Source: Archangium violaceum (GTDB lineage: Bacteria > Myxococcota > Myxococcia > Myxococcales > Myxococcaceae). Taken from it: DNA of 64,000 nt. The position numbers and the translations under genes are program-made. Location: contig NZ_CP069396.1 of assembly GCF_016887565.1 (NCBI RefSeq), positions 8,042,001 to 8,106,000 of the forward strand, given 5' to 3'. Positions 52,078 to 62,621 of the stretch are shown here, piece after piece. Numbering within the stretch: the first letter of the stretch is position 1; every line of letters begins with the position of its first letter. Under the pieces are notes generated by a model. The model was not told where the DNA came from, searched no databases, and was given only the letters and a program-made list of their open reading frames with translations.

Positions 52078-53508
52078 ATGGCCAGTGGCCTCATCATTCC
52101 TGGAGTCCAGGTAACCGTCGTCAAGGAAGTCCTTCCCCAGCAACTCGCGCCGTCCGGAGTGCTGGGCCTCATCGGGTTCACGGAGGAGAACCCCGGCAAG
52201 GTGGTGCGCGCGAGCAACTGGTCGCGCTTCGTGGGAGTGCTGGGCCGCGCGAGCGCCTACAGCCTGCCCGAGGCGAAGCAGGCGCTCGACAACGGCGTCT
52301 CCGAGCTGGTCGTCTCGCCGCTTCCCGCCAGCGCCGGGGCCACCGCGAAGGTGGTCATCCCGGCGGACGCCACCAAGGGCGCGAGCCCGGCGGAACCGGC
52401 CAAGGACGCGCCCAAGGACACGCCCAAGGGCAAGGACGCCAAGGCTGGCGCCGGCATCACCCTCCTGGCGCGCGCCCCGGGGCCCTGGGCCAACGGCATC
52501 GGCATCAAGATCGAGTACCGCAACAACCTCGACCAGAGCATCTCGTTCGACCTGCAGGTCCTGGGCGAGAGCAACGGCAAGGAAGTCGTCCTCGAGGTGC
52601 ACCGCAACCTCACCCTGGAGTCGCTGACCGCGACGCTGAAGGCGGGCTCCGCCTACGTGAAGGTGGACGAGTCGAAGGCGATCGGCTGGCCCGCCGCGGA
52701 GGTGTACACGCTCGCGGGAGGCAAGGACGCGACCGCCGATGACTATGCCGCCGCGCTCCGCCGCCTCCAGGACGAGCCCGACGTGGACATGGTCCTCGCC
52801 GCCATCCAGGACTTCTCGGATCGGGCGAAGGTGACGCGCATCTACGGCGACGTCATCAGCCACTGCAACAACCTGAGCGACGACTGCAAGGGCCGCCTCG
52901 GCTTCGGCCAGGTGCCGGACGCGGGCACCATGGAGGAGTACGTGCAGCTCGCCAGCAACCTGGTGAGCGACCGGTTCGTGCTGGTGGCGCCCAACGGCGT
53001 GGCGGGCGCGGTGGCCGGCCTCGTGGGCAACCTCCCCTACTTCTACTCGCCCACCTTCAAGCGCATCTCCGGCGCGGGCGAGCTGCCGCCCATCCCGGTG
53101 GATGACCAGAAGACCCTGCTCAAGGGCAACGTGGTCCCCGTGGTGCTCGAGCGCGGCCGCGGCACCATCGTGCTGCGCGGGCTCACCACGGATGGCGACC
53201 AGATCAACGTGCGCCGCGTGGCCGACCGGGCCGTGCGCACCCTGAAGATGATCGGCAACCTCTTCATCGGCCAGCTCAACACCGCGGACGGGCGCAGCGC
53301 GCTCAAGCAGAAGCTGACCGAGGCCATGCTCCAGATGGAGAAGGACGGAGCCATCGTCCCCTCCACGGATGGGAAGGATCCCGCCTTCAAGGTGGAGGTC
53401 TATTCCTCTCAGGAGGACTTCGCGCTGGGCATCGTCAGGGTGAACCTGGCCGTGCGGCCCGTGCGAGCCATTGACTACGTCTACGCGACCATCACGGTCC
53501 AGGTCTGA
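52078..53508 (+). CDS. Contractile tail sheath protein
   Basis: This 476-residue phage-tail sheath protein forms the contractile outer tube. It begins MASGLIIPGVQVTVVKEVLPQQ, continues with VLGLIGFTEENPGKV and has an Ala/Lys/Asp/Pro-rich insert about residues 95-125. Its C-terminal part has DFALGIVRVNLAVRPVRAIDYVYATITV, the usual core of sheath proteins that joins neighbours by strands. It is related to the XkdK/gpFI-type sheath. A single sheath gene is visible, unlike the two or three of many extracellular injection systems. The start follows the leader hairpin; the tube gene begins 15 bases later. Confidence 0.85.
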   Translation: MASGLIIPGVQVTVVKEVLPQQLAPSGVLGLIGFTEENPGKVVRASNWSRFVGVLGRASAYSLPEAKQALDNGVSELVVSPLPASAGATAKVVIPADATKGASPAEPAKDAPKDTPKGKDAKAGAGITLLARAPGPWANGIGIKIEYRNNLDQSISFDLQVLGESNGKEVVLEVHRNLTLESLTATLKAGSAYVKVDESKAIGWPAAEVYTLAGGKDATADDYAAALRRLQDEPDVDMVLAAIQDFSDRAKVTRIYGDVISHCNNLSDDCKGRLGFGQVPDAGTMEEYVQLASNLVSDRFVLVAPNGVAGAVAGLVGNLPYFYSPTFKRISGAGELPPIPVDDQKTLLKGNVVPVVLERGRGTIVLRGLTTDGDQINVRRVADRAVRTLKMIGNLFIGQLNTADGRSALKQKLTEAMLQMEKDGAIVPSTDGKDPAFKVEVYSSQEDFALGIVRVNLAVRPVRAIDYVYATITVQV

Positions 53509-53523
53509 TGAGGAAACACCCAG

Positions 53524-53913
53524 ATGCCAACGGTATTCTCCGCCAATCGCAGCAGCATCCTCGTCGACGGTGAGGCCGTCGAGGGACTCCAGTCGCTCGT
53601 CTTCCGCGTCGTCACCGAGCGCGAGGACATCCGGGCCATCGGCTCCAACGAGCGGGTCGAGGTCATCTTCGGCCTGCGCACCGTGCAGGGCGAGCTGGTG
53701 ATCCGCTCCGCCAGCGTCAAGCTCGACACGCTGTTGCAGAACCGCGCGAAGTTCCAGCTCGTCGCGAGCCTCAAGCGCACCGAGGGCAACGACGAGACGC
53801 GCACGGTGTCGTTCGACGACTGCTTCGTGGAGGGCAAGTCCTTCCGCCTGGACGCGCACGGCAGCGCGGCCACCAGCTACGCGTTCACCGCCACGCGGGT
53901 GCGCGAGGAATAG
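53524..53913 (+). CDS. Tail tube protein (XkdM-like)
   Basis: This 129-residue beta-rich protein occupies the slot right after the sheath, normally that of the inner tube. The pattern SSILVDGEAVEGLQSLVFRV, then VIRSASVKLDTLLQ and TVSFDDCFVEGKSFRLD, resembles the XkdM-type tube proteins of PBSX-like tails. It is on the short side for that family. The start ATG at 53524 is 15 bases after the sheath stop. The tube call is based on position and fold character. Confidence 0.7.
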   Translation: MPTVFSANRSSILVDGEAVEGLQSLVFRVVTEREDIRAIGSNERVEVIFGLRTVQGELVIRSASVKLDTLLQNRAKFQLVASLKRTEGNDETRTVSFDDCFVEGKSFRLDAHGSAATSYAFTATRVREE

Positions 53914-53916
53914 TCC

Positions 53917-54789
53917 ATGGGAGCGGAGCCCGCGCACATGGAGGCCACGGAGGAGGCCGGCACCCCGGCCGCCTCCCGCATCGAGGTGGACGGCAGGTGT
54001 TTCTCCGTCCACTTCGAGGGCCCGGACGAACACGTGGTGCGGGTGGATACGGGCTCGGGGGAGCGCGTCCAACTGCGCCGCTGGGGGTTCGACGAGCACC
54101 TGCGGGCGCTCGACCGGCATGCCTGGGCCGATGAGCGCGGGCTCCGCTTCGATCACGAAGGTTTCTCGCGCGACGTGCTGCGCGACTCCGGTGTGCCGGA
54201 ACCGCTCCACGAGGAGCTGGCACCCCTGGCCCTGTGGTGGGCCACCGGTGGAGACCGGGAACCAACCTCTGGCGTGGGACCTGACGGATGGCTGCGCATC
54301 GGAGCCATCCGCGCCCGGCTCCGGCCGTGGACATTCTCGGAGCGTTCGAGGGCCATGGGCCAGAGCCTCACCGCGCGTCCCGATGGCTCCCGGGAGCTCG
54401 GGCTCGAGCGCTATCTGCGAGCGATGCTCGCCGCGTCCGTCGTGGCGTTCGAGCCGGCGGGGGTGGAGCTGTCGATGCTGGACGGAGCCACCACGGCCGC
54501 GCTGCTCGACGCGGTCGTCGCGCTCAACACGGCTGGAGAGCGCGACGAGGACAAGAAGATGAGGGCCTCCGATGCCGGGGGCCAGGCGCTGGCGCGAATG
54601 ACGCTGCTCCTGTGCCGGACACTCGGGTGGACGCCCTCGCAGGTGTGGGAGGCACCGGCGGCGGAGATCGACCGGCTGCTCTCGATTCTGGCTGTGACGG
54701 AGGCATCGGCTCCGTCACCGGCGGCGCCTCGGACCCCGGGGCTCGCTGATTACCCCGATGCGGTGGTGATCCAGGTGGAGGCAGGGTGA
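53917..54789 (+). CDS. Tail-assembly chaperone-like protein
   Basis: This 290-residue protein lies in the position of tail-assembly chaperones, between the tube and the tape-measure slot. It has an N-terminal beta part (RIEVDGRCFSVHFEGPDEHVV), a middle AMLAASVVAFEPAGVELSML, and a final ARMTLLLCRTLGWTPSQVWEAPAAEIDR that fits the short helical chaperone domain of XkdN-like proteins. It is longer than a typical chaperone, so the N-terminal half may be an added domain. No frameshift product is evident, unlike in many phages. It overlaps the next gene by one base. Confidence 0.6.
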   Translation: MGAEPAHMEATEEAGTPAASRIEVDGRCFSVHFEGPDEHVVRVDTGSGERVQLRRWGFDEHLRALDRHAWADERGLRFDHEGFSRDVLRDSGVPEPLHEELAPLALWWATGGDREPTSGVGPDGWLRIGAIRARLRPWTFSERSRAMGQSLTARPDGSRELGLERYLRAMLAASVVAFEPAGVELSMLDGATTAALLDAVVALNTAGERDEDKKMRASDAGGQALARMTLLLCRTLGWTPSQVWEAPAAEIDRLLSILAVTEASAPSPAAPRTPGLADYPDAVVIQVEAG

Positions 54790-56378
54790 TGCGCGCGAAC
54801 ACCACGACACTGGGAATCGTCTCATTCCTCTCCCGCCCGGCATTCCGGGTGATGGAAGACATCGCGCGGCAACTGGGAACCCGGCTTCCCGAGGAGCCCT
54901 CCGGCACCAGCACCGAAGGCACTCAGGAGTTGCCTGCTTCCGAGCAGCAGGTGAGCGCGCGAACGGAGCCTGGCTCGTCGCCCGCCGCCACCTCGCGTGC
55001 CGGGACGGCGGAGGCCACGCAGACCCTGTCCCCATCACATTCCCTTGTCGGCATGGAGACCGTCAGCAGATCCTCATCCGAGCCCGCCACCTCGCGTGCC
55101 GAGATCCGGAGCCTCGATCCACTCCCGGCTGGCTCCGAGGCCCCTTCCATCCAGGACGCAATCACGGAAGCTGGAACACGCGCGCCTGTTACCTCGCGTC
55201 CCCTGTCCGCTCCTCGTGCGGAGGTCCGGAGCAGCGACCCCATGGCGCGGACAGGCGCCGTCACTCCGGGTGCGCAGGAGCGCGACAAGCGCATCGTTCG
55301 GCTCCTGCCTCGTACCGCACCAGGTGCGGAAGCCCCAACTTCGAGCACCTCGCGCCCCTTCGTGCCCCTCGAGGACACGACCCATTCCTCCACCTCGAGC
55401 CAGCCCCCCGGCATTCAAGCGAAGGCATCGGTTCCGTCCACCGCGCCCTCCCCTGCCTGGGCCGAAACTTCGTCATCGCCTTCGCCCTCCATCGTCCGTG
55501 CCGAAATGCTCCCGGCGTCGCCGGCCATCGCTCGCGCCGAAGCTCCGCCATCGCTTTCGCATTCCGTCGCTCGCGCCGAGACACACCCGGCTTCTCCTTC
55601 CGTGGCCCGTGCAGAAGCCCCGTCATCGCTTTCGCCCTCCGTCGCCCGCGCTGAAGTGCCACCGGCATCCGCATCCGTGGCTCGAACTGAAGCGCTGTCC
55701 CCTCTCCCGAGCTCGGCTGGAGAGAGCGGGTCTCGGAAGCAGGCTGCTCCGTCGCCCGCACAGCGCGCGGATGTGCGGAGCACGCCAGGCCCGCGCGTCG
55801 TCCGTATCCTCCCTCGCGCCGAGTCATCCACCGAGCCCCCCGCCCGCGCTTCTTCGCGGCAGGACGTCGACACCGGGCAGGAACTCCGACCCACCTCCTC
55901 CATCGAGCCCACCGCCGCCCGCGCCGCCACGTCTGGCTCCGGGCCGGAGTCGGGCGGAAGCGCGAGCCCCAGGACCCGTCTCACGTTCCTCCCGACTCCC
56001 GAGTCCCCCGCATCCCCGGCCCTCGAGTCCCCTGCTTCCCGAGCGCCCGTGACCTCGCCGCTCCCCACCTCCGAAGGCATCAGCGGCCCTCGGCCCGGCG
56101 CAGTCCCCGCCGCTCTCGCCGAGCAGGTCACGCGAGGTCTGTCGCCCGTCTGGGAGCAGGCCCACCAGCTCACGCACACCGCGCTCACCGTGGAGCGGGC
56201 CTCGACTCCCGCGAGCACCGTGACGGCTCCTCCGAGCGGCGCCGTGCGCAACACGTTCAACGTCAACGTCCACCTGGATCCCTCCGCACCCCAGGAGGGC
56301 CTGGACCGGCGCACGTTGGAGGACGCGCTGGTCGACATCCTTCGCGAGACGGCACGCCGTCATGGGTTGGAGGTCTGA
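54789..56378 (+). CDS. Long disordered Ser/Pro/Ala-rich protein in the tape-measure position
   Basis: This 529-residue protein starts at the ATG at 54789 (TGATG overlap with the previous gene); GTG at 54786 is the alternative. Residues about 30-470 are almost entirely Ser, Pro, Ala, Thr, Arg and Glu, with repeated xRAE cores. The ordered ends are MRANTTTLGIVSFLSRPAFRV and, at the C-terminus, NTFNVNVHLDPSAP.GLDRRTLEDALVDIL. Its place after the chaperone-like gene is where a tail tape-measure gene normally sits, but classical tape measures are helical. The protein may set tail length, act as a scaffold, or be a disordered linker. The function is unproven. Confidence 0.6.
   Translation: MRANTTTLGIVSFLSRPAFRVMEDIARQLGTRLPEEPSGTSTEGTQELPASEQQVSARTEPGSSPAATSRAGTAEATQTLSPSHSLVGMETVSRSSSEPATSRAEIRSLDPLPAGSEAPSIQDAITEAGTRAPVTSRPLSAPRAEVRSSDPMARTGAVTPGAQERDKRIVRLLPRTAPGAEAPTSSTSRPFVPLEDTTHSSTSSQPPGIQAKASVPSTAPSPAWAETSSSPSPSIVRAEMLPASPAIARAEAPPSLSHSVARAETHPASPSVARAEAPSSLSPSVARAEVPPASASVARTEALSPLPSSAGESGSRKQAAPSPAQRADVRSTPGPRVVRILPRAESSTEPPARASSRQDVDTGQELRPTSSIEPTAARAATSGSGPESGGSASPRTRLTFLPTPESPASPALESPASRAPVTSPLPTSEGISGPRPGAVPAALAEQVTRGLSPVWEQAHQLTHTALTVERASTPASTVTAPPSGAVRNTFNVNVHLDPSAPQEGLDRRTLEDALVDILRETARRHGLEV
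55484..55700 (+). repeat. Alternating 12/13-residue RAE repeats
   Basis: Within the disordered protein the cores VRAE, ARAE, ARAE, ARAE, ARAE and ARTE follow each other at 12, 13, 12, 13 and 12 residues, a higher-order period of 25 residues (75 bases). The repeats are diverged in third positions, so the expansion is old. Confidence 0.8.
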
Positions 56379-56381
56379 GCC

Positions 56382-57410
56382 ATGGCTGGAATCGCCTACG
56401 AAGTGACGATCGGCTCCTTCCAGGCCTCGAGCCAGGCCGGCCAGGGCAACGGGTACGTCCGCTCCATCGTCAGCGAGCTGACCATGGATGGTGTCGGTGG
56501 ACGCTGCTACCTGGAGCTGGTGGCCTCGGACTCGGAGCCACCCGCGCCCGGGGACGAGACAACGGTCTCCCTCGACGACGGAAACGGCGCCGTCACGGTC
56601 TTCACCGGCACGGTGCTGGAGACGAAGGCTTCGCCGGACACGACCCTCATCGTGGGCACCGATGCGCTGGCGAAGCTCGCCCGGATCGACGTGAGCGGCT
56701 CCTACGAGCAGACGTCGGCCGGCTCCATCGTCAGCGAGCTGGTCCAGCAGGCCGGAGCCACCGCGGGCACCGTCGAGGACGGTCCCACGTTCACAAGCTA
56801 CGTGCTCCACCGCGGACCGAGGGCGCTCCGCCACATCCACCGTCTGGCCGAGCAGTGCGGCTTCGACGTGTACACGGATGGAGAGGGCAAGGTGCACTTC
56901 GCCGCGCCGAAGCAGGGCGGGCCGGACCACACCTTCGTCTATCGGGAGCAGGTCCTGAAGATCGAGCTCCTGCGCACTCCGCTGGCCTACGACGGCGTGG
57001 AGGTCTGGGGCGAGGGCGCCGCGAGCACCCAGGGCTCCGAGAAGTCCCACTGGCTCGTCGCCGATCTCTCGTCGGTCAGCGGCAAGGCCGCCGCCGATGC
57101 GGACTTCAGCGTGCAATCCGGCAGCGAGGGTGAGCGCTCGCGCGAGGTGCGGGACGGCGCGGTGCGGACCGGCGACGACGCGACCGCCCAGGCCCAGGCG
57201 CGGATGACGGCGCTGGCCTCACGCGCCCTGCGTGGCTTCGCCGTGGTGCTCGGCGCCCCGGCCGTGAAGCCGGGGGACCTCGTGAAGTTCGATGACATCC
57301 CCGCCACGCACGCGGTGCATGCGCTGGCCTCCGACAAGGTGCTCCGCGTGCGCGCGGTGCGGCACACGCTGAATGCCCGGTCGGGCTTCGTCACCCGGAT
57401 GGAGTTCTGA
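56382..57410 (+). CDS. Tail hub protein (gpD-like)
   Basis: This 342-residue protein resembles the phage late-control gpD hub that links the tube to the spike. It has an N-terminal beta region (YEVTIGSFQASSQAG), then SGSYEQTSAGSIVSELVQQAG, FTSYVLHRGPRALRHIHRLAEQCGFDVYTDGEGKVHFAAP, and a C-terminal FDDIPATHAVHALASDKVLRVRAVRHTLNARSG. The helix with LAEQCGFDVY is typical of gpD/VgrG hub cores. The start ATG lies 4 bases after the previous stop. It precedes the DNA_circ_N-like gene, whereas PBSX has the two in the opposite order. Confidence 0.75.
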   Translation: MAGIAYEVTIGSFQASSQAGQGNGYVRSIVSELTMDGVGGRCYLELVASDSEPPAPGDETTVSLDDGNGAVTVFTGTVLETKASPDTTLIVGTDALAKLARIDVSGSYEQTSAGSIVSELVQQAGATAGTVEDGPTFTSYVLHRGPRALRHIHRLAEQCGFDVYTDGEGKVHFAAPKQGGPDHTFVYREQVLKIELLRTPLAYDGVEVWGEGAASTQGSEKSHWLVADLSSVSGKAAADADFSVQSGSEGERSREVRDGAVRTGDDATAQAQARMTALASRALRGFAVVLGAPAVKPGDLVKFDDIPATHAVHALASDKVLRVRAVRHTLNARSGFVTRMEF

Positions 57411-58302: not shown

Positions 58303-58844
58303 GCACCACCACGGCGGACATCATCGACGGCATCGCCCGGCTCATCACCGCGCTCAAGGAGCTGCTCGAGACCGATACGGTCGAGGCGCTGGTGGACCTG
58401 GTGAAGAAGCTCGGCATCGGCCAGCCGGTGAAGGTCGGGCTCCAGGCGCTCGCCCGGGTGCTCGACATCCTCGTCGGGTGGATCGAGAAGCTGGAGCAGG
58501 TGGCGCGCATCCCAGCGTTCCTCGAAACCCTGGATCCAGCCTTCGAGCAGGTGAAGGAGCTGGCGAGCAGCTCGGGTCAGGAGATGCGGGACATGGGGCT
58601 CGGCTCACTGGCGCCCGTGGTCGACGCATCCCGGGCGGCGATCGATCTCGCGGACAAGATCCGGCGCGGTGCCGAGATCATCCTGAAGGGTTACCTGCCC
58701 GAGCAGTCCATCGTGCACCTGCGGGAGTCCGTCCAGGGCCTCGCCAACAGGCTTCGGCAGATGCAGCAGAAGCTCGATGCCCCGGCGGCGGCCCCCGCCG
58801 CGACCGCGAACAAGTCCCTCCTTCCCGCCGGAGCCATTCCATGA
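58299..58844 (+). CDS. Helical protein in the tail operon
   Basis: This 181-residue protein has a GTG start (GTGA overlap with the previous gene). It is nearly all amphipathic helix: IIDGIARLITALKELLET, ALARVLDILVGWIEKLEQ, LADKIRRGAEIILKGYLPEQS, LANRLRQMQQKLD, then an Ala/Pro tail. I do not recognise a family. It lies between the gpN-type gene and the spike gene and overlaps the latter by four bases, so it is probably an integral baseplate or assembly component. Confidence 0.6.
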   Translation: MSTTTADIIDGIARLITALKELLETDTVEALVDLVKKLGIGQPVKVGLQALARVLDILVGWIEKLEQVARIPAFLETLDPAFEQVKELASSSGQEMRDMGLGSLAPVVDASRAAIDLADKIRRGAEIILKGYLPEQSIVHLRESVQGLANRLRQMQQKLDAPAAAPAATANKSLLPAGAIP

Positions 58845-59473
58845 GCGACCTCGTGACCATCATCCGTGCCCTCATCCGCGACGAGCTCGCGAGCCTGCGC
58901 CTCGGCGACATCGGCGTGGTGACCAGCTCCTTCCCCCATGCGGACGGGGACGAGAACAACCTCGAGTGCAACGTGAAGCTGCGCGAGAGCGACGTGGAGC
59001 TGCGCAAGGTGCCCATCGTCACCCCGCACATCGGGATGGTGAGCGCGCCGCGTACGGGAGAGCTGGTCCTCATCTCCTACGTGGCAGGGGATCCCAACCG
59101 CCCCATCGTGGTGGGCCGGCTCTACTCGGACGAGGTCAACCCGCCCGTCCACGAGGCGGACGAGTGGCGCGTCGTGGCGCCTCCGGGGGGCACCACCTCC
59201 ATCGCCATCGACAAGGACCAGTCCATCGTCTTCACCGCCGGGGAGAACGTGGTGACGATCAAGCAGGACGACGTCATCACCATCCAGGGCAAGGCGGACC
59301 TGACCATCCAGGTGGACGGCAACGTCGAGCTCAAGTGCCAGGACTGCAAGATCGACGCGTCCGGCAACATCGACCTGGGCAGCAGTGGCAGTGGCGTCAT
59401 CACCGAGAAGAGCCACAAGTGCTACTTCACCGGCGAGGCGCTCAAGGGCTCGCAGAGCGTGAAGGCGAAGTGA
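58841..59473 (+). CDS. Baseplate spike protein (gpV-like)
   Basis: This 210-residue spike starts at the ATG at 58841. An OB-fold (VTSSFPHADGDENNLECNVKLR; GELVLISYVAGDPNRPIVVGRLYSDE) is followed by a beta-helix of short strands (AGENVVTIKQDDVITIQGKADLTIQVDGN; CQDCKIDASGNIDLGSSGSG), the structure of P2 gpV/Mu gp45 trimeric spikes. The C-terminal Cys pairs CQDC and KC may bind a metal at the tip, as in other spikes. The next protein probably caps it. It overlaps the previous gene by four bases. Confidence 0.8.
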   Translation: MSDLVTIIRALIRDELASLRLGDIGVVTSSFPHADGDENNLECNVKLRESDVELRKVPIVTPHIGMVSAPRTGELVLISYVAGDPNRPIVVGRLYSDEVNPPVHEADEWRVVAPPGGTTSIAIDKDQSIVFTAGENVVTIKQDDVITIQGKADLTIQVDGNVELKCQDCKIDASGNIDLGSSGSGVITEKSHKCYFTGEALKGSQSVKAK

Positions 59474-59476
59474 GCC

Positions 59477-60127
59477 ATGCCCGCACCGAGCGCATCCGAG
59501 ATCGAGAACCTCGCCAAGGGCGCCATGCAGTCGGCGAGCCTGCGGGGCGAGAACGCCCCGGACCTGGCGGCCGCGCTGGGACAGGCCTGCGGACAGGCCT
59601 TCACCCTGTTCGTGTCCCTGGCCATGGTGGCTCCCGGCATCCCCGCGGCGGCGCCCCCTCCGGCCGGCTCCGGCAGCACCGCGGGGCCGGGAACGCTGCT
59701 GCCCCCGCCCGCGGGCGGACCCGGCGCGTCGATGATCGAGCCCATCGCCATGGGCATGCTCGCCTCGAACAAGATTCGAGGTGAGAAGCAGAGCGCGCTG
59801 GCCAAGGCCATCGCCCAGTCCATCGAGCAGGCGCTCACCCTCTTCACCACGCAGGTGAAGGTCGCGCCGGGGATGGCCATCGCCGGCTTCACCACCACGG
59901 CTCCGGGCAACCTCATGGGCGCGGCACCCGCCAAACCCATGCTCCAGCCCATCGTCCTGGGCTTCCTCCAATCGGGAGGCATGCGCGGGCAGAACGCCCC
60001 GGACCTGGCCGGAGCCATCGCCGAAACGCTGTCCAACGCGCTCACCCAGATGATGACGCGGCTCAAGGTGACCCCGGGCATTCCGTGCACGCCCGCGGCC
60101 ACCGCCGGGCCCGGGAGGTTGGTGTGA
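59477..60127 (+). CDS. Triplicated-domain protein downstream of the spike
   Basis: This 216-residue protein consists of three tandem, diverged copies of one ~60-residue unit, at about residues 9-74, 87-146 and 156-216. Shared features in order are I-x-x-[IL]-[AV]-x-G, then a short [ML]-x-S, [LIM]RG[EQN], a helix such as ALGQACGQAF / AIAQSIEQAL / AIAETLSNAL, then V[AT]PG[IM] and TA[GP]PG near each end. Units 1 and 3 also share NAPDLA. I know no family for this. Its place right after the trimeric spike and its threefold internal repeat suggest a pseudo-threefold cap or adapter, as with PAAR proteins, which is an inference. Confidence 0.65.
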   Translation: MPAPSASEIENLAKGAMQSASLRGENAPDLAAALGQACGQAFTLFVSLAMVAPGIPAAAPPPAGSGSTAGPGTLLPPPAGGPGASMIEPIAMGMLASNKIRGEKQSALAKAIAQSIEQALTLFTTQVKVAPGMAIAGFTTTAPGNLMGAAPAKPMLQPIVLGFLQSGGMRGQNAPDLAGAIAETLSNALTQMMTRLKVTPGIPCTPAATAGPGRLV

Positions 60128-60537
60128 TGGCGGACGAGCTGAAGACAGACTTGAAGCTGGCCTTCAAGGACACGGGCGAGATCGACCTCGACTGGAGCAC
60201 CGACACCGGGGCGGCCACGGTGAGCGGCAAGGACAACCTCGTCCAGGCCCTGACGATGCGGCTGATCGTCTACCGGGGGCACCTGGAGCAGCTCGGCCAT
60301 GGCCGCTACGGCAGCCGGGTGGCGGACCTCATCGGCGAGCCGTTGGATCGCCAGAACCTCGAGCTGCTGCGCCGCTACGTGCGCCAGGCGCTCAAGGAGG
60401 ACCCGCGCGTCCAGGAGGTGACGTCCCTGCGCGTCAGCGCCCGTCCCGATCTGCCGGGAGCGGTGGATGTGCGGGCCAGCGTCCGGGCCATCACTGGCGA
60501 CGAAGTGGAGCTGGGCCTCGCGCTCGACCTCGGGTGA
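60127..60537 (+). CDS. Baseplate wedge protein W/gp25-like
   Basis: This 136-residue gp25/gpW-type wedge protein has IDLDWSTDTGAATVSGKDNLVQALTMRL and LGHGRYGSRVADLIGEPLDRQN with the conserved 'G-x-x-x-x-x-L-x-R' area, then LRRYVRQALKEDPRVQEV and ELGLALDL at the end. gp25-like proteins join the baseplate to the sheath. The ATG at 60127 overlaps the previous stop by one base (TGATG). Position next to spike and J is standard in P2/Mu-like tails. Confidence 0.85.
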   Translation: MADELKTDLKLAFKDTGEIDLDWSTDTGAATVSGKDNLVQALTMRLIVYRGHLEQLGHGRYGSRVADLIGEPLDRQNLELLRRYVRQALKEDPRVQEVTSLRVSARPDLPGAVDVRASVRAITGDEVELGLALDLG

Positions 60538-60585: not shown

Positions 60586-61080
60586 ATGGACCTCAGTGAA
60601 AAGCCAGGCATGAACGGAGTGCTGACCATCGAGCTGCTCGACACGAGCGGAGCGCTGGTGGAGCAGCGCCGGGTCAACAACCTCATCACCACGGCGGGCA
60701 AGCAGTTGCTGGCCAACCTGCTGCTGGGAAAGGTGAACGCGCTGCCCACGCGCTGGGCCATCGCGGTGGGCACGGGGGTGGAGGCCGCGAACATCGCGGA
60801 CACCGCGCTCAAGACCAGGGTGGACGAGGCGGTGGATCCCTCTCCCAAGGTGGAGGTCATCACGCGCGACGGGGCGAGCGTCGTCCGGGCCACGGTGTCC
60901 GCCACCCTGCCCGTCCCCGCCCTGGCCGCCAATGACAAACCCCAGGCCCTCTCCGAGGCGGGGATTCAAATCACCCAGGGCAACGGCACCGCCCCCATCC
61001 TCTTCAACCGCGTGCAGTTCGCGCAGGTCAACCGTGGCGCCAACATGGTCATGAAGATGACCTGGGAGATCACGTTTTGA
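60586..61080 (+). CDS. Uncharacterised tail-operon protein, beta-rich
   Basis: This 164-residue protein starts at the ATG at 60586, 48 bases after the gp25 stop, a larger gap than others in the operon. It is mostly beta-strand: VLTIELLDTSGALVEQRRVNN, AGKQLLANLLLGK with one helix, WAIAVGTGVEAANIADT, VRATVSATLPVPALA, FNRVQFAQVNRGANMVMKM. Similar VNN-then-helix-then-strand patterns occur in phage virion proteins I cannot name. It overlaps the baseplate J gene by four bases. Confidence 0.55.
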   Translation: MDLSEKPGMNGVLTIELLDTSGALVEQRRVNNLITTAGKQLLANLLLGKVNALPTRWAIAVGTGVEAANIADTALKTRVDEAVDPSPKVEVITRDGASVVRATVSATLPVPALAANDKPQALSEAGIQITQGNGTAPILFNRVQFAQVNRGANMVMKMTWEITF

Positions 61081-62621
61081 GCCTCGAATCGCTCGATACC
61101 TCGTTCAGCGCCATCGTCGACCGGCTGCTGTCGAACCTCGGGCCGGGTCTCGACACGAACACCGGGAGCATGGCGCGCACCCTGGCGGAGTCCTACGCGC
61201 GGGAGATGGCCACCTTCTACGTCATGCTCGAGCTCGCCCACCGCTCGGGCTATGTCGACACGGCCGAGGGCGATGCCCTGGACAACGTCGTGGCCGTGCT
61301 GGGCATCGACCGCGCCCGGGCGGGCCGGCTCACCGGAGAGGTGGAGTTCAGCCGCAACTCGCCCGCGCCGGATGACATCGGCATTCCCGCGGGCCGGCTG
61401 GTGACGGGTCTGCCCTCGGACTCCACGCCCCTGCCCCTGTTCGAGACCCTGGAGGACGCCACGCTCCGCCGGGGAGAGACGCGGGTCACCGTCCGGGTGC
61501 AGCAGGTCCAGGACGACGCGAAGGACGCGAAGAAGGCGCCCCCCGTCATCGATCCCGGAAAGCTCATCGTGATGCCCCGGCCCGTGCTGGGCATCGAGGC
61601 CGTCACCAACCGCGCTCCCATCCGTCGCACCGGAGAGGACGAGACGGACGAGAGCTTTCGCGCCCGGGCCCGCACCGCCCTGCGGGATGGAGAGAAGGGC
61701 ACGCTCGAGGCCATCGCCTCCGCCGTGCGCCAGCAGGGCGTCCAGCGGGTGACCGTGCGCGAGCCGCCAGACGCTCCCGCCGGGGTGGTCGACGTGCTGG
61801 TGGGAGATCCCGACTTCAGCCAGGACCCCAGCGGCGTCCAGCGGGTCTGGGACGCCATCCGTGGCTCCAAGGCCGCCGGCATCCAGGTGCGGCTCCAGTA
61901 CGCGCGCACCATCTACTTCCAGGTCGAGCTCCAGATTGAGCCCGCGGACCCGGATGTGGACGAGGCCGCGTTCGACCGACTGCGGCGCGAGCTCCAGCAA
62001 TCCCTCTCCCGCTTCGCCCAGGGTCTGCCCGCGGGCGAGACGGTGCGCCGCCGCAAGCTCGAGGCCGTCCTCTACGCCAACCCGGCCGTCCGCCACATCG
62101 ACGGCCTGCGCGTGCTCACCTACGTCTGGGGTGTCGATCGGGACGATCCCCAGAAGTCCGCGCTCGTCCTCGAGGCGAAGAGCCGGGAGTACGGGCCCGA
62201 TCGTGACTGGCGGCTCGACAACCTCGAGACGGTGGCGATCGACCTGGAGAAGAAGCCACCGCTCATCTCCCGGCTGCGGCCGTCCATCTACCGCATCGAC
62301 CTGGTCGTCTCCGCCCGGCGCGCCGATCCGCGCACGCCCGAGCAGATCCGCCAGGCGCTGCGCGGCGCGGTGGAGCAGTACGCGGCCCGGCTCGCCAAGG
62401 AGGCGCAGGCCACGAACAAGCCCCAGGCGATCCTCTGGGAGGACCTCCAGATGACGCTCAAGCAGCAGGCCGAGGTGGAGCAGCTGCTCTCCGCGGTGGT
62501 CACCCCGGATGACGGCCTCGCCCAGGTGCTGGCGCAGTCCAGCGGGAAGCAGGCGGCCCTCACCCTCGATCAGGGCACGCGCATGGAGCTCGGCGGCGCC
62601 GAGATGGTGGGATTGGGATGA
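61077..62621 (+). CDS. Baseplate J/gp47-family protein
   Basis: This 514-residue baseplate J-like protein has a TTG start at 61077 (TTGA overlap with the previous gene). It has an N-terminal helical part MARTLAESYAREMATFYVMLELA, YVDTAEGDALDNVVAVLGIDR, and then GEVEFSRNSPAPDDIGIPAGRLV. The typical J core, with DESFRARARTALRDGEKGT near residue 190, is followed by a C-terminal region of alternating strands. It forms the baseplate wedge together with gpW. The length is larger than phage P2 J (about 300), nearer to Afp11-type proteins. Confidence 0.82.
   Translation: MSLESLDTSFSAIVDRLLSNLGPGLDTNTGSMARTLAESYAREMATFYVMLELAHRSGYVDTAEGDALDNVVAVLGIDRARAGRLTGEVEFSRNSPAPDDIGIPAGRLVTGLPSDSTPLPLFETLEDATLRRGETRVTVRVQQVQDDAKDAKKAPPVIDPGKLIVMPRPVLGIEAVTNRAPIRRTGEDETDESFRARARTALRDGEKGTLEAIASAVRQQGVQRVTVREPPDAPAGVVDVLVGDPDFSQDPSGVQRVWDAIRGSKAAGIQVRLQYARTIYFQVELQIEPADPDVDEAAFDRLRRELQQSLSRFAQGLPAGETVRRRKLEAVLYANPAVRHIDGLRVLTYVWGVDRDDPQKSALVLEAKSREYGPDRDWRLDNLETVAIDLEKKPPLISRLRPSIYRIDLVVSARRADPRTPEQIRQALRGAVEQYAARLAKEAQATNKPQAILWEDLQMTLKQQAEVEQLLSAVVTPDDGLAQVLAQSSGKQAALTLDQGTRMELGGAEMVGLG

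What the first reader, a model, noticed from the sequence alone, without database searches (positions are those of the whole stretch)
59477..60127. Three tandem ~60-residue repeats in the protein after the spike: a possible pseudo-threefold cap
The three units (about 9-74, 87-146 and 156-216) share the order of motifs [LIM]RG[EQN], an amphipathic helix, V[AT]PG[IM] and TA[GP]PG. The gene directly follows the gpV-like spike, which is a trimer in this family. PAAR proteins cap such spikes with a threefold-symmetric cone made by internal repeats. A triplicated chain would give the same symmetry match from a different fold. I do not know any described family like it.
Basis: partly seen in the sequence, partly recalled or inferred. 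Interest (0 to 1): 0.75.

Follow-up and report, generated by a model that had tools for sequence, protein, structure and literature searches.

The report
Fused triplet beside a tail spike
A myxobacterial phage-tail-like injection machine carries, right after its three-chain spike, a protein made of three fused copies of a small unit that many phages encode singly at the same place, which suggests a non-PAAR partner of the spike tip with one unit per spike chain; the contact itself has not been shown.

Summary
The repeats are real. P0001 (59477-60127) holds three ~65-residue units far above chance. All 26 distinct loci examined in Myxococcaceae and Chitinibacteraceae have exactly three, even where the gene is split 2+1. 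The gene always lies between the gpV-like spike and the gp25-like wedge gene of a headless contractile tail. It is not PAAR, DUF4150 or DUF4280 by sequence, and no such gene lies in the cluster in the ten genomes searched. In two sister tail systems the same slot encodes a weak PAAR-motif protein, as it encodes an annotated PAAR protein in phage WO.

The triplet is not an orphan. Phages of Vibrio, Helicobacter and others, and most IMG/VR spikes with the same apex motif (69 of 74), have in this slot a single-unit 57-89 aa protein (phrog_5576, function unknown). The spike apex is clearly homologous to theirs (hhalign 96.6%, P 5e-10). The units match weakly but well above permuted controls.

Best reading: a non-PAAR partner of the spike apex, one unit per spike chain, free in phages and fused into a covalent trimer here. 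Threefold geometry and contact with the spike are inferred. A chaperone role remains possible.

The parts
59477..60127 (+). Triplicated slot protein P0001 (216 aa), candidate spike-apex partner
   Evidence: three units; 26 loci with exactly three units
59489..59701 (+). Unit 1 (residues 5-75), with a longer PG...PG arm (PPPxGSGS insertion)
59723..59917 (+). Unit 2 (residues 83-147)
59930..60124 (+). Unit 3 (residues 152-216)
58841..59473 (+). gpV-like spike (OB + beta-helix) with C-terminal apex GVITEKSHKCYFTGEALKGSQSVKAK
   Evidence: apex homologous to phage FTG-PH apex, hhalign 96.6%
60127..60537 (+). gp25-like sheath initiator / baseplate wedge (gpW)
   Evidence: Sheath_initiator E 1.2e-5; phrog_975 E 2.2e-15
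56382..57410 (+). gpD-like hub
   Evidence: phrog_196 E 8e-10
61077..62621 (+). Baseplate J-like (gp6-type) wedge
   Evidence: Baseplate_J E 1.4e-11
52078..53508 (+). Contractile tail sheath
   Evidence: phrog_279 E 1.5e-19
53524..53913 (+). Likely tail tube protein (by position after the sheath and conservation)
   Evidence: Position; 65-85% identity to the other loci; no family match

Best explanation
P0001 is a structural or assembly partner of the apex of the trimeric gpV-like spike of a headless contractile tail. Each ~65-residue unit is a helical hairpin followed by a short V-x-PG...PG-x-L arm. One unit serves one spike chain. In Vibrio, Helicobacter and many uncultured phages the partner is a single-unit protein that would be needed in three copies. 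In myxobacteria and Chitinibacteraceae it was triplicated in one chain, a covalent trimer (with a 2+1 split in two genomes). It sits in the slot used for PAAR tips in sister systems, and most likely works like PAAR: it covers and stabilises the tip that goes through the target envelope. Shown here: repeats, strict number three, slot, co-occurrence with the apex motif, one-unit relatives (unit-level homology moderate). Inferred: contact, threefold packing, tip function.
For: Repeats far above chance. Exactly three units in all 26 distinct loci, grouped by position in the tree, so the triplication is old and kept (support for the unit 1 and unit 3 groups is weak). Split 2+1 over two ORFs in G008 and G109, still three units. 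Spike-P0001-gp25 order in 27 of 27 loci, with a gap of 2-5 nt in most; spike and P0001 present in the same 24 genomes of 195 in the phylum sample. All 27 spikes end in a GVIT...HKCYFTG apex; four sister spikes without it have a weak PAAR_motif protein in the slot (E 0.0024 and 0.0083, below cut-off); phage WO has an annotated PAAR-family protein there. Phage spikes with the homologous apex (hhalign 96.6%, P 5e-10; score 45 against a permuted maximum of 20) are followed by a single-unit protein in 69 of 74 loci. Single-unit family versus triplet units: hhalign score 23.8 against a maximum of 14.3 in 200 permuted alignments, P 2e-4. AF2 monomer: helix-helix plus short strands per unit, pLDDT 74, pTM 0.74. 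No PF05488, PF13665 or PF14107 gene inside the cluster in the ten genomes searched.
Against: No complex was modelled and threefold symmetry was not measured. The spike has a conserved H/C-rich apex of its own and might need no cap. The unit-level homology to phrog_5576 is weak taken alone (hhalign probability 46%, aligned region mainly the helices). The second AF2 run, on one unit alone, gave low confidence for the arm (pLDDT 42-45).
Confidence: 0.55

Rival explanations
1. Assembly chaperone: the units hold or help fold the spike C-terminus during trimer assembly and are absent from the finished tail. The apex is self-capped by its own H/C-rich motif.
For: The apex motif is long and invariant; phages with an HxH spike apex have no slot gene; small helical proteins are typical of chaperones; DUF2169 is a known chaperone for non-canonical spike tips (PMC11883445).
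Against: The slot is filled by PAAR in related systems, where it is a structural tip. A chaperone does not obviously need exactly three fused units.
Confidence: 0.27
2. Adaptor that loads an effector or other cargo on the spike tip, with three units as three docking sites.
For: PAAR proteins do this in T6SS (PMC8651079).
Against: No fused toxin or variable domain in any homologue; units are conserved and the next gene is the gp25-like wedge gene. The proposed relatives occur in ordinary phages that inject DNA.
Confidence: 0.08
3. Three-unit protein that binds elsewhere in the baseplate (hub or wedge), with gene order and apex correlation due to shared ancestry of the module.
For: The neighbouring gene is a wedge protein; the modules are inherited together.
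Against: The slot protein changes with the spike apex type across distant lineages, while the wedge gene stays.
Confidence: 0.1

Closest known systems
phrog_5576, single-unit slot protein of VHML, VP882 (gp17), VP58.5 and Helicobacter prophages (function unknown)
   Same: Gene position between gpV and gpW; homologous spike apex; probable helical hairpin plus short V...G arm; about 65 residues per unit
   Different: One unit instead of three fused; arm is VPVTGGSSAGTYKV rather than VxPGI...TAGPGxL; sequence similarity weak taken alone
PAAR-repeat tip proteins (PF05488), e.g. phage WO and T6SS
   Same: Slot after the spike; proposed match of an internally threefold chain to a trimeric spike; likely tip role
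   Different: No PAAR family match; mostly helical in prediction rather than a beta cone; the spike has its own apex motif
DUF4150 / PIPY (PF13665) and DUF4280 (PF14107) PAAR-like tips
   Same: Small, proline/glycine-rich spike-tip proteins
   Different: No family match and no such gene in this cluster
P2 gpV self-capped spike (HxH apex)
   Same: gpV-type spike with conserved metal-ligand-like residues near the end
   Different: P2-type loci have no slot gene; here the apex is HKCYFTG and a slot gene is always present

Membership tests
PAAR-repeat proteins (PF05488) | Match to the PAAR_motif profile | tested here: not met
   No PAAR_motif match up to E 1 for P0001 or for 18 single units (E up to 5)
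PAAR-repeat proteins (PF05488) | Gene beside the spike gene | tested here: met
   the same slot holds PAAR-like genes in sister loci and phage WO
PAAR-repeat proteins (PF05488) | Beta-cone fold bound to the trimeric spike tip | tested here: inconclusive
   AF2 monomer is mainly helical; Foldseek gave no significant match; no complex could be modelled
DUF4150/PIPY (PF13665) | Match to the family profile | tested here: not met
   No match in P0001; none in the own genome
DUF4280 (PF14107) | Match to the family profile | tested here: not met
   No match in P0001; the two genome copies lie far from the cluster
phrog_5576 single-unit slot proteins | Direct profile match (hmmscan) | tested here: not met
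   No phrog_5576 match for P0001 or for single units
phrog_5576 single-unit slot proteins | Profile-profile similarity to the family | tested here: inconclusive
   Score 23.8 against a permuted maximum of 14.3, P 2e-4, probability 46%
phrog_5576 single-unit slot proteins | Encoded between gpV carrying the FTG apex and gpW | tested here: met

The most novel reading that the evidence does not exclude
An undescribed, widespread family of non-PAAR spike-tip proteins, free single units in many phages, which bind a distinct H/C-rich spike apex as homotrimers; in myxobacteria and Chitinibacteraceae evolution has fused three of them into a natural covalent trimer that matches the spike's symmetry.
Probability: 0.42. 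Interest if true: 0.75.

Novelty: new variant of a known kind. Interest (0 to 1): 0.6.

Why it matters
The tip is the first part of a contractile tail to meet the target envelope, and PAAR and its PAAR-like relatives are the main described solution to placing one chain on a trimeric spike. A second solution, free in phages and fused in bacteria, would give a name and a testable role to a small phage protein family of unknown function, and a natural case of a homotrimer turned into a single chain.

Tried and rejected
Direct relatives of P0001 in INPHARED phages, PLSDB plasmids, IMG/VR: none. Pfam, PHROGs, NCBIfam, PDB sequence: no convincing match (the best was phrog_31301 at E 0.0026 over 26 residues). 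Foldseek PDB and viral library: nothing at E 0.001; VIA best Z 5.2 to the CAP1 six-helix domain, within the range of a common helical arrangement. Single-unit AF2 model: low confidence, no useful fold match. Cryo-EM paper on Vibrio phage XM1: the spike stack was not resolved, and the numbering given (gp14 spike, gp15 sheath initiator) leaves no slot gene, so it does not bear on the question. The idea that the protein is a lone invention of this genome was rejected. Full prophage with head genes: no head gene was recognised among the cluster genes scanned, and homology between most loci ends at the tail cluster, about 51-69 kb in window numbering.

Full report
Observation. The ORF at 59477-60127 encodes 216 residues with three units of about 65 residues. 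Pairwise scores are 108, 125 and 123 against a best of 53-60 in 2000 shuffles per pair. The gene follows the gpV-like spike by 3 nt and precedes a gp25-like gene. Substitution patterns show purifying selection.

Surroundings. The region encodes a contractile tail: sheath, a likely tube protein, gpD-like hub, a circularisation-protein-N-like gene, spike, P0001, gp25-like, a gene with a tail-fibre-like match, gpJ-like and further fibre genes. Comparison with other genomes delimits a cluster of about 17 kb, 51-69 kb in window numbering and running past the window end into L046. No head gene was recognised in it, and the flanks differ between most genomes, so it looks like a headless tail (tailocin or contractile injection system) rather than a complete prophage.

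Relatives with three units. Profile searches found the protein in Archangium, Myxococcus, Corallococcus and Pyxidicoccus, in other genomes of the same family known here only by handle, and in Chitinolyticbacter and Chitiniphilus of the Betaproteobacteria. Every one of 26 distinct loci has three units. In a tree the units group by position 1, 2 and 3, although support for the groups of units 1 and 3 is weak; identity within a position averages 67-72% and between positions 37-43%. In genomes G008 and G109 the protein is split into a two-unit and a one-unit ORF, so a single unit can be its own chain and the total stays three. Order spike, P0001, gp25 holds in 27 of 27 loci.

What the slot is. Four related tail clusters in the same family of bacteria (L117-L120, two types) have spikes 30-40% identical to this one over residues 1-184 but without the C-terminal apex GVITExSHKCYFTG. 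In their slot is a protein with a weak PAAR_motif match (E 0.0024 and 0.0083, below the curated cut-off). Phage WO has an annotated PAAR-family protein in the same slot after a spike that ends without an apex motif. Spikes with an HxH apex are followed directly by gpW. P0001 itself has no PAAR, DUF4150 or DUF4280 match, and none of these families has a member inside the cluster in ten genomes; the own genome has DUF4280 proteins elsewhere.

Single-unit relatives. The last 48 residues of the spike led to Helicobacter prophages whose gpV ends in CAFTGSPHPQGS and CPFTGSPHTQGS. In H. apodemus, H. pullorum, VP882 and VHML the slot holds one small protein of 65-72 residues, by eye two helix-like stretches and a V...G...G arm; all four match phrog_5576, function unknown. 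In IMG/VR, relatives of the VHML protein lie directly after a spike with this apex in 50 of the 53 loci; the other three are two truncated matches and one where my script picked a wrong frame. An independent scan by apex pattern gave 80 loci; of 74 with enough sequence downstream, 69 have the single-unit protein, 57-89 residues, never two or three units. Of the five others, L220 goes straight to a gp25-like gene, L269 looks like a divergent unit, and the rest are unexplained.

Strength of the link. The spike apexes are homologous: hhalign 96.6%, P 5e-10, against a maximum score of 20 in 200 permuted alignments (real 45). The units themselves match weakly: hhalign P 2e-4, probability 46%, score 23.8 against a maximum of 14.3 in 200 permuted alignments and 11.3 reversed; by hmmsearch the 20 best of the database are real units, ahead of some 3500 shuffles, though real units are not independent of one another and the E-values are modest (0.03 at best). 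Together with gene position and apex I take them as one family with moderate confidence. Direct hmmscan membership in phrog_5576 is not met.

Structure. AlphaFold2 with 11 sequences gave pLDDT 74, pTM 0.74: per unit two helices and short strands around the V-x-PG and PG-x-L segments; the five models varied from 57 to 74. The single unit alone was poor, with the arm below 50. Coordinates are not released, so pseudo-threefold symmetry was neither confirmed nor excluded. Fold searches gave nothing significant.

Interpretation. The simplest account is that each unit interacts with one spike chain at or near the apex; phages would need three copies, and here three are fused. That fits the constant number three, the 2+1 splits, the exchange with PAAR in the slot, and the tie to one apex type. 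Whether the protein is part of the tip or a chaperone of the apex cannot be told from sequence. The spike has its own conserved H/C apex, which is an argument for the chaperone reading. I give 0.55 to the tip-partner reading and 0.27 to the chaperone.

Caveats. Few independent lineages carry the triplet; clusters are inherited as modules, so part of the correlation is shared ancestry. That the spike is a trimer, and metal binding at its apex, are analogies with P2 gpV and VgrG from general knowledge and were not tested.

Noticed in passing
L046 6143-7261 (genome 8112143-8113261, about 6 kb past the window end): CRISPR array of at least 16 repeats of 36 nt (GTGCTCAACGCCTCTCGGCATCACGGCGAGCGGGAC) with about 33-37 nt spacers, close after the tail cluster.
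   Followed up: partly
L046 8569-11017, - strand: ORFs that look like an IS21-type IstB/IstA transposase pair downstream of the CRISPR array (by eye from the translation).
   Followed up: no
window 54786-56378: 530-aa Pro/Ser/Ala-rich protein between the likely assembly chaperone and the hub; only about 80-110 residues are matched in other loci.
   Followed up: no
L044 (BNCN01000016.1): Record named 'Comamonas sp. KCTC 72670' belongs to a 9.0-Mb genome whose tail cluster matches the Myxococcus-group genome G124 (same place and E-values); the organism name is probably wrong.
   Followed up: partly
L136 1946-2140 (AY133112.1 24398-24592): Unannotated 65-aa ORF in Vibrio phage VHML, the single-unit slot protein between ORF30 and ORF31.
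   Followed up: yes
window 60586-61080: 164-aa protein with a good match to phrog_5417 (unknown function, E 2.7e-20) between the gp25-like and gpJ-like genes in Myxococcaceae, but further downstream, after gpJ, in Chitinibacteraceae and G109.
   Followed up: no
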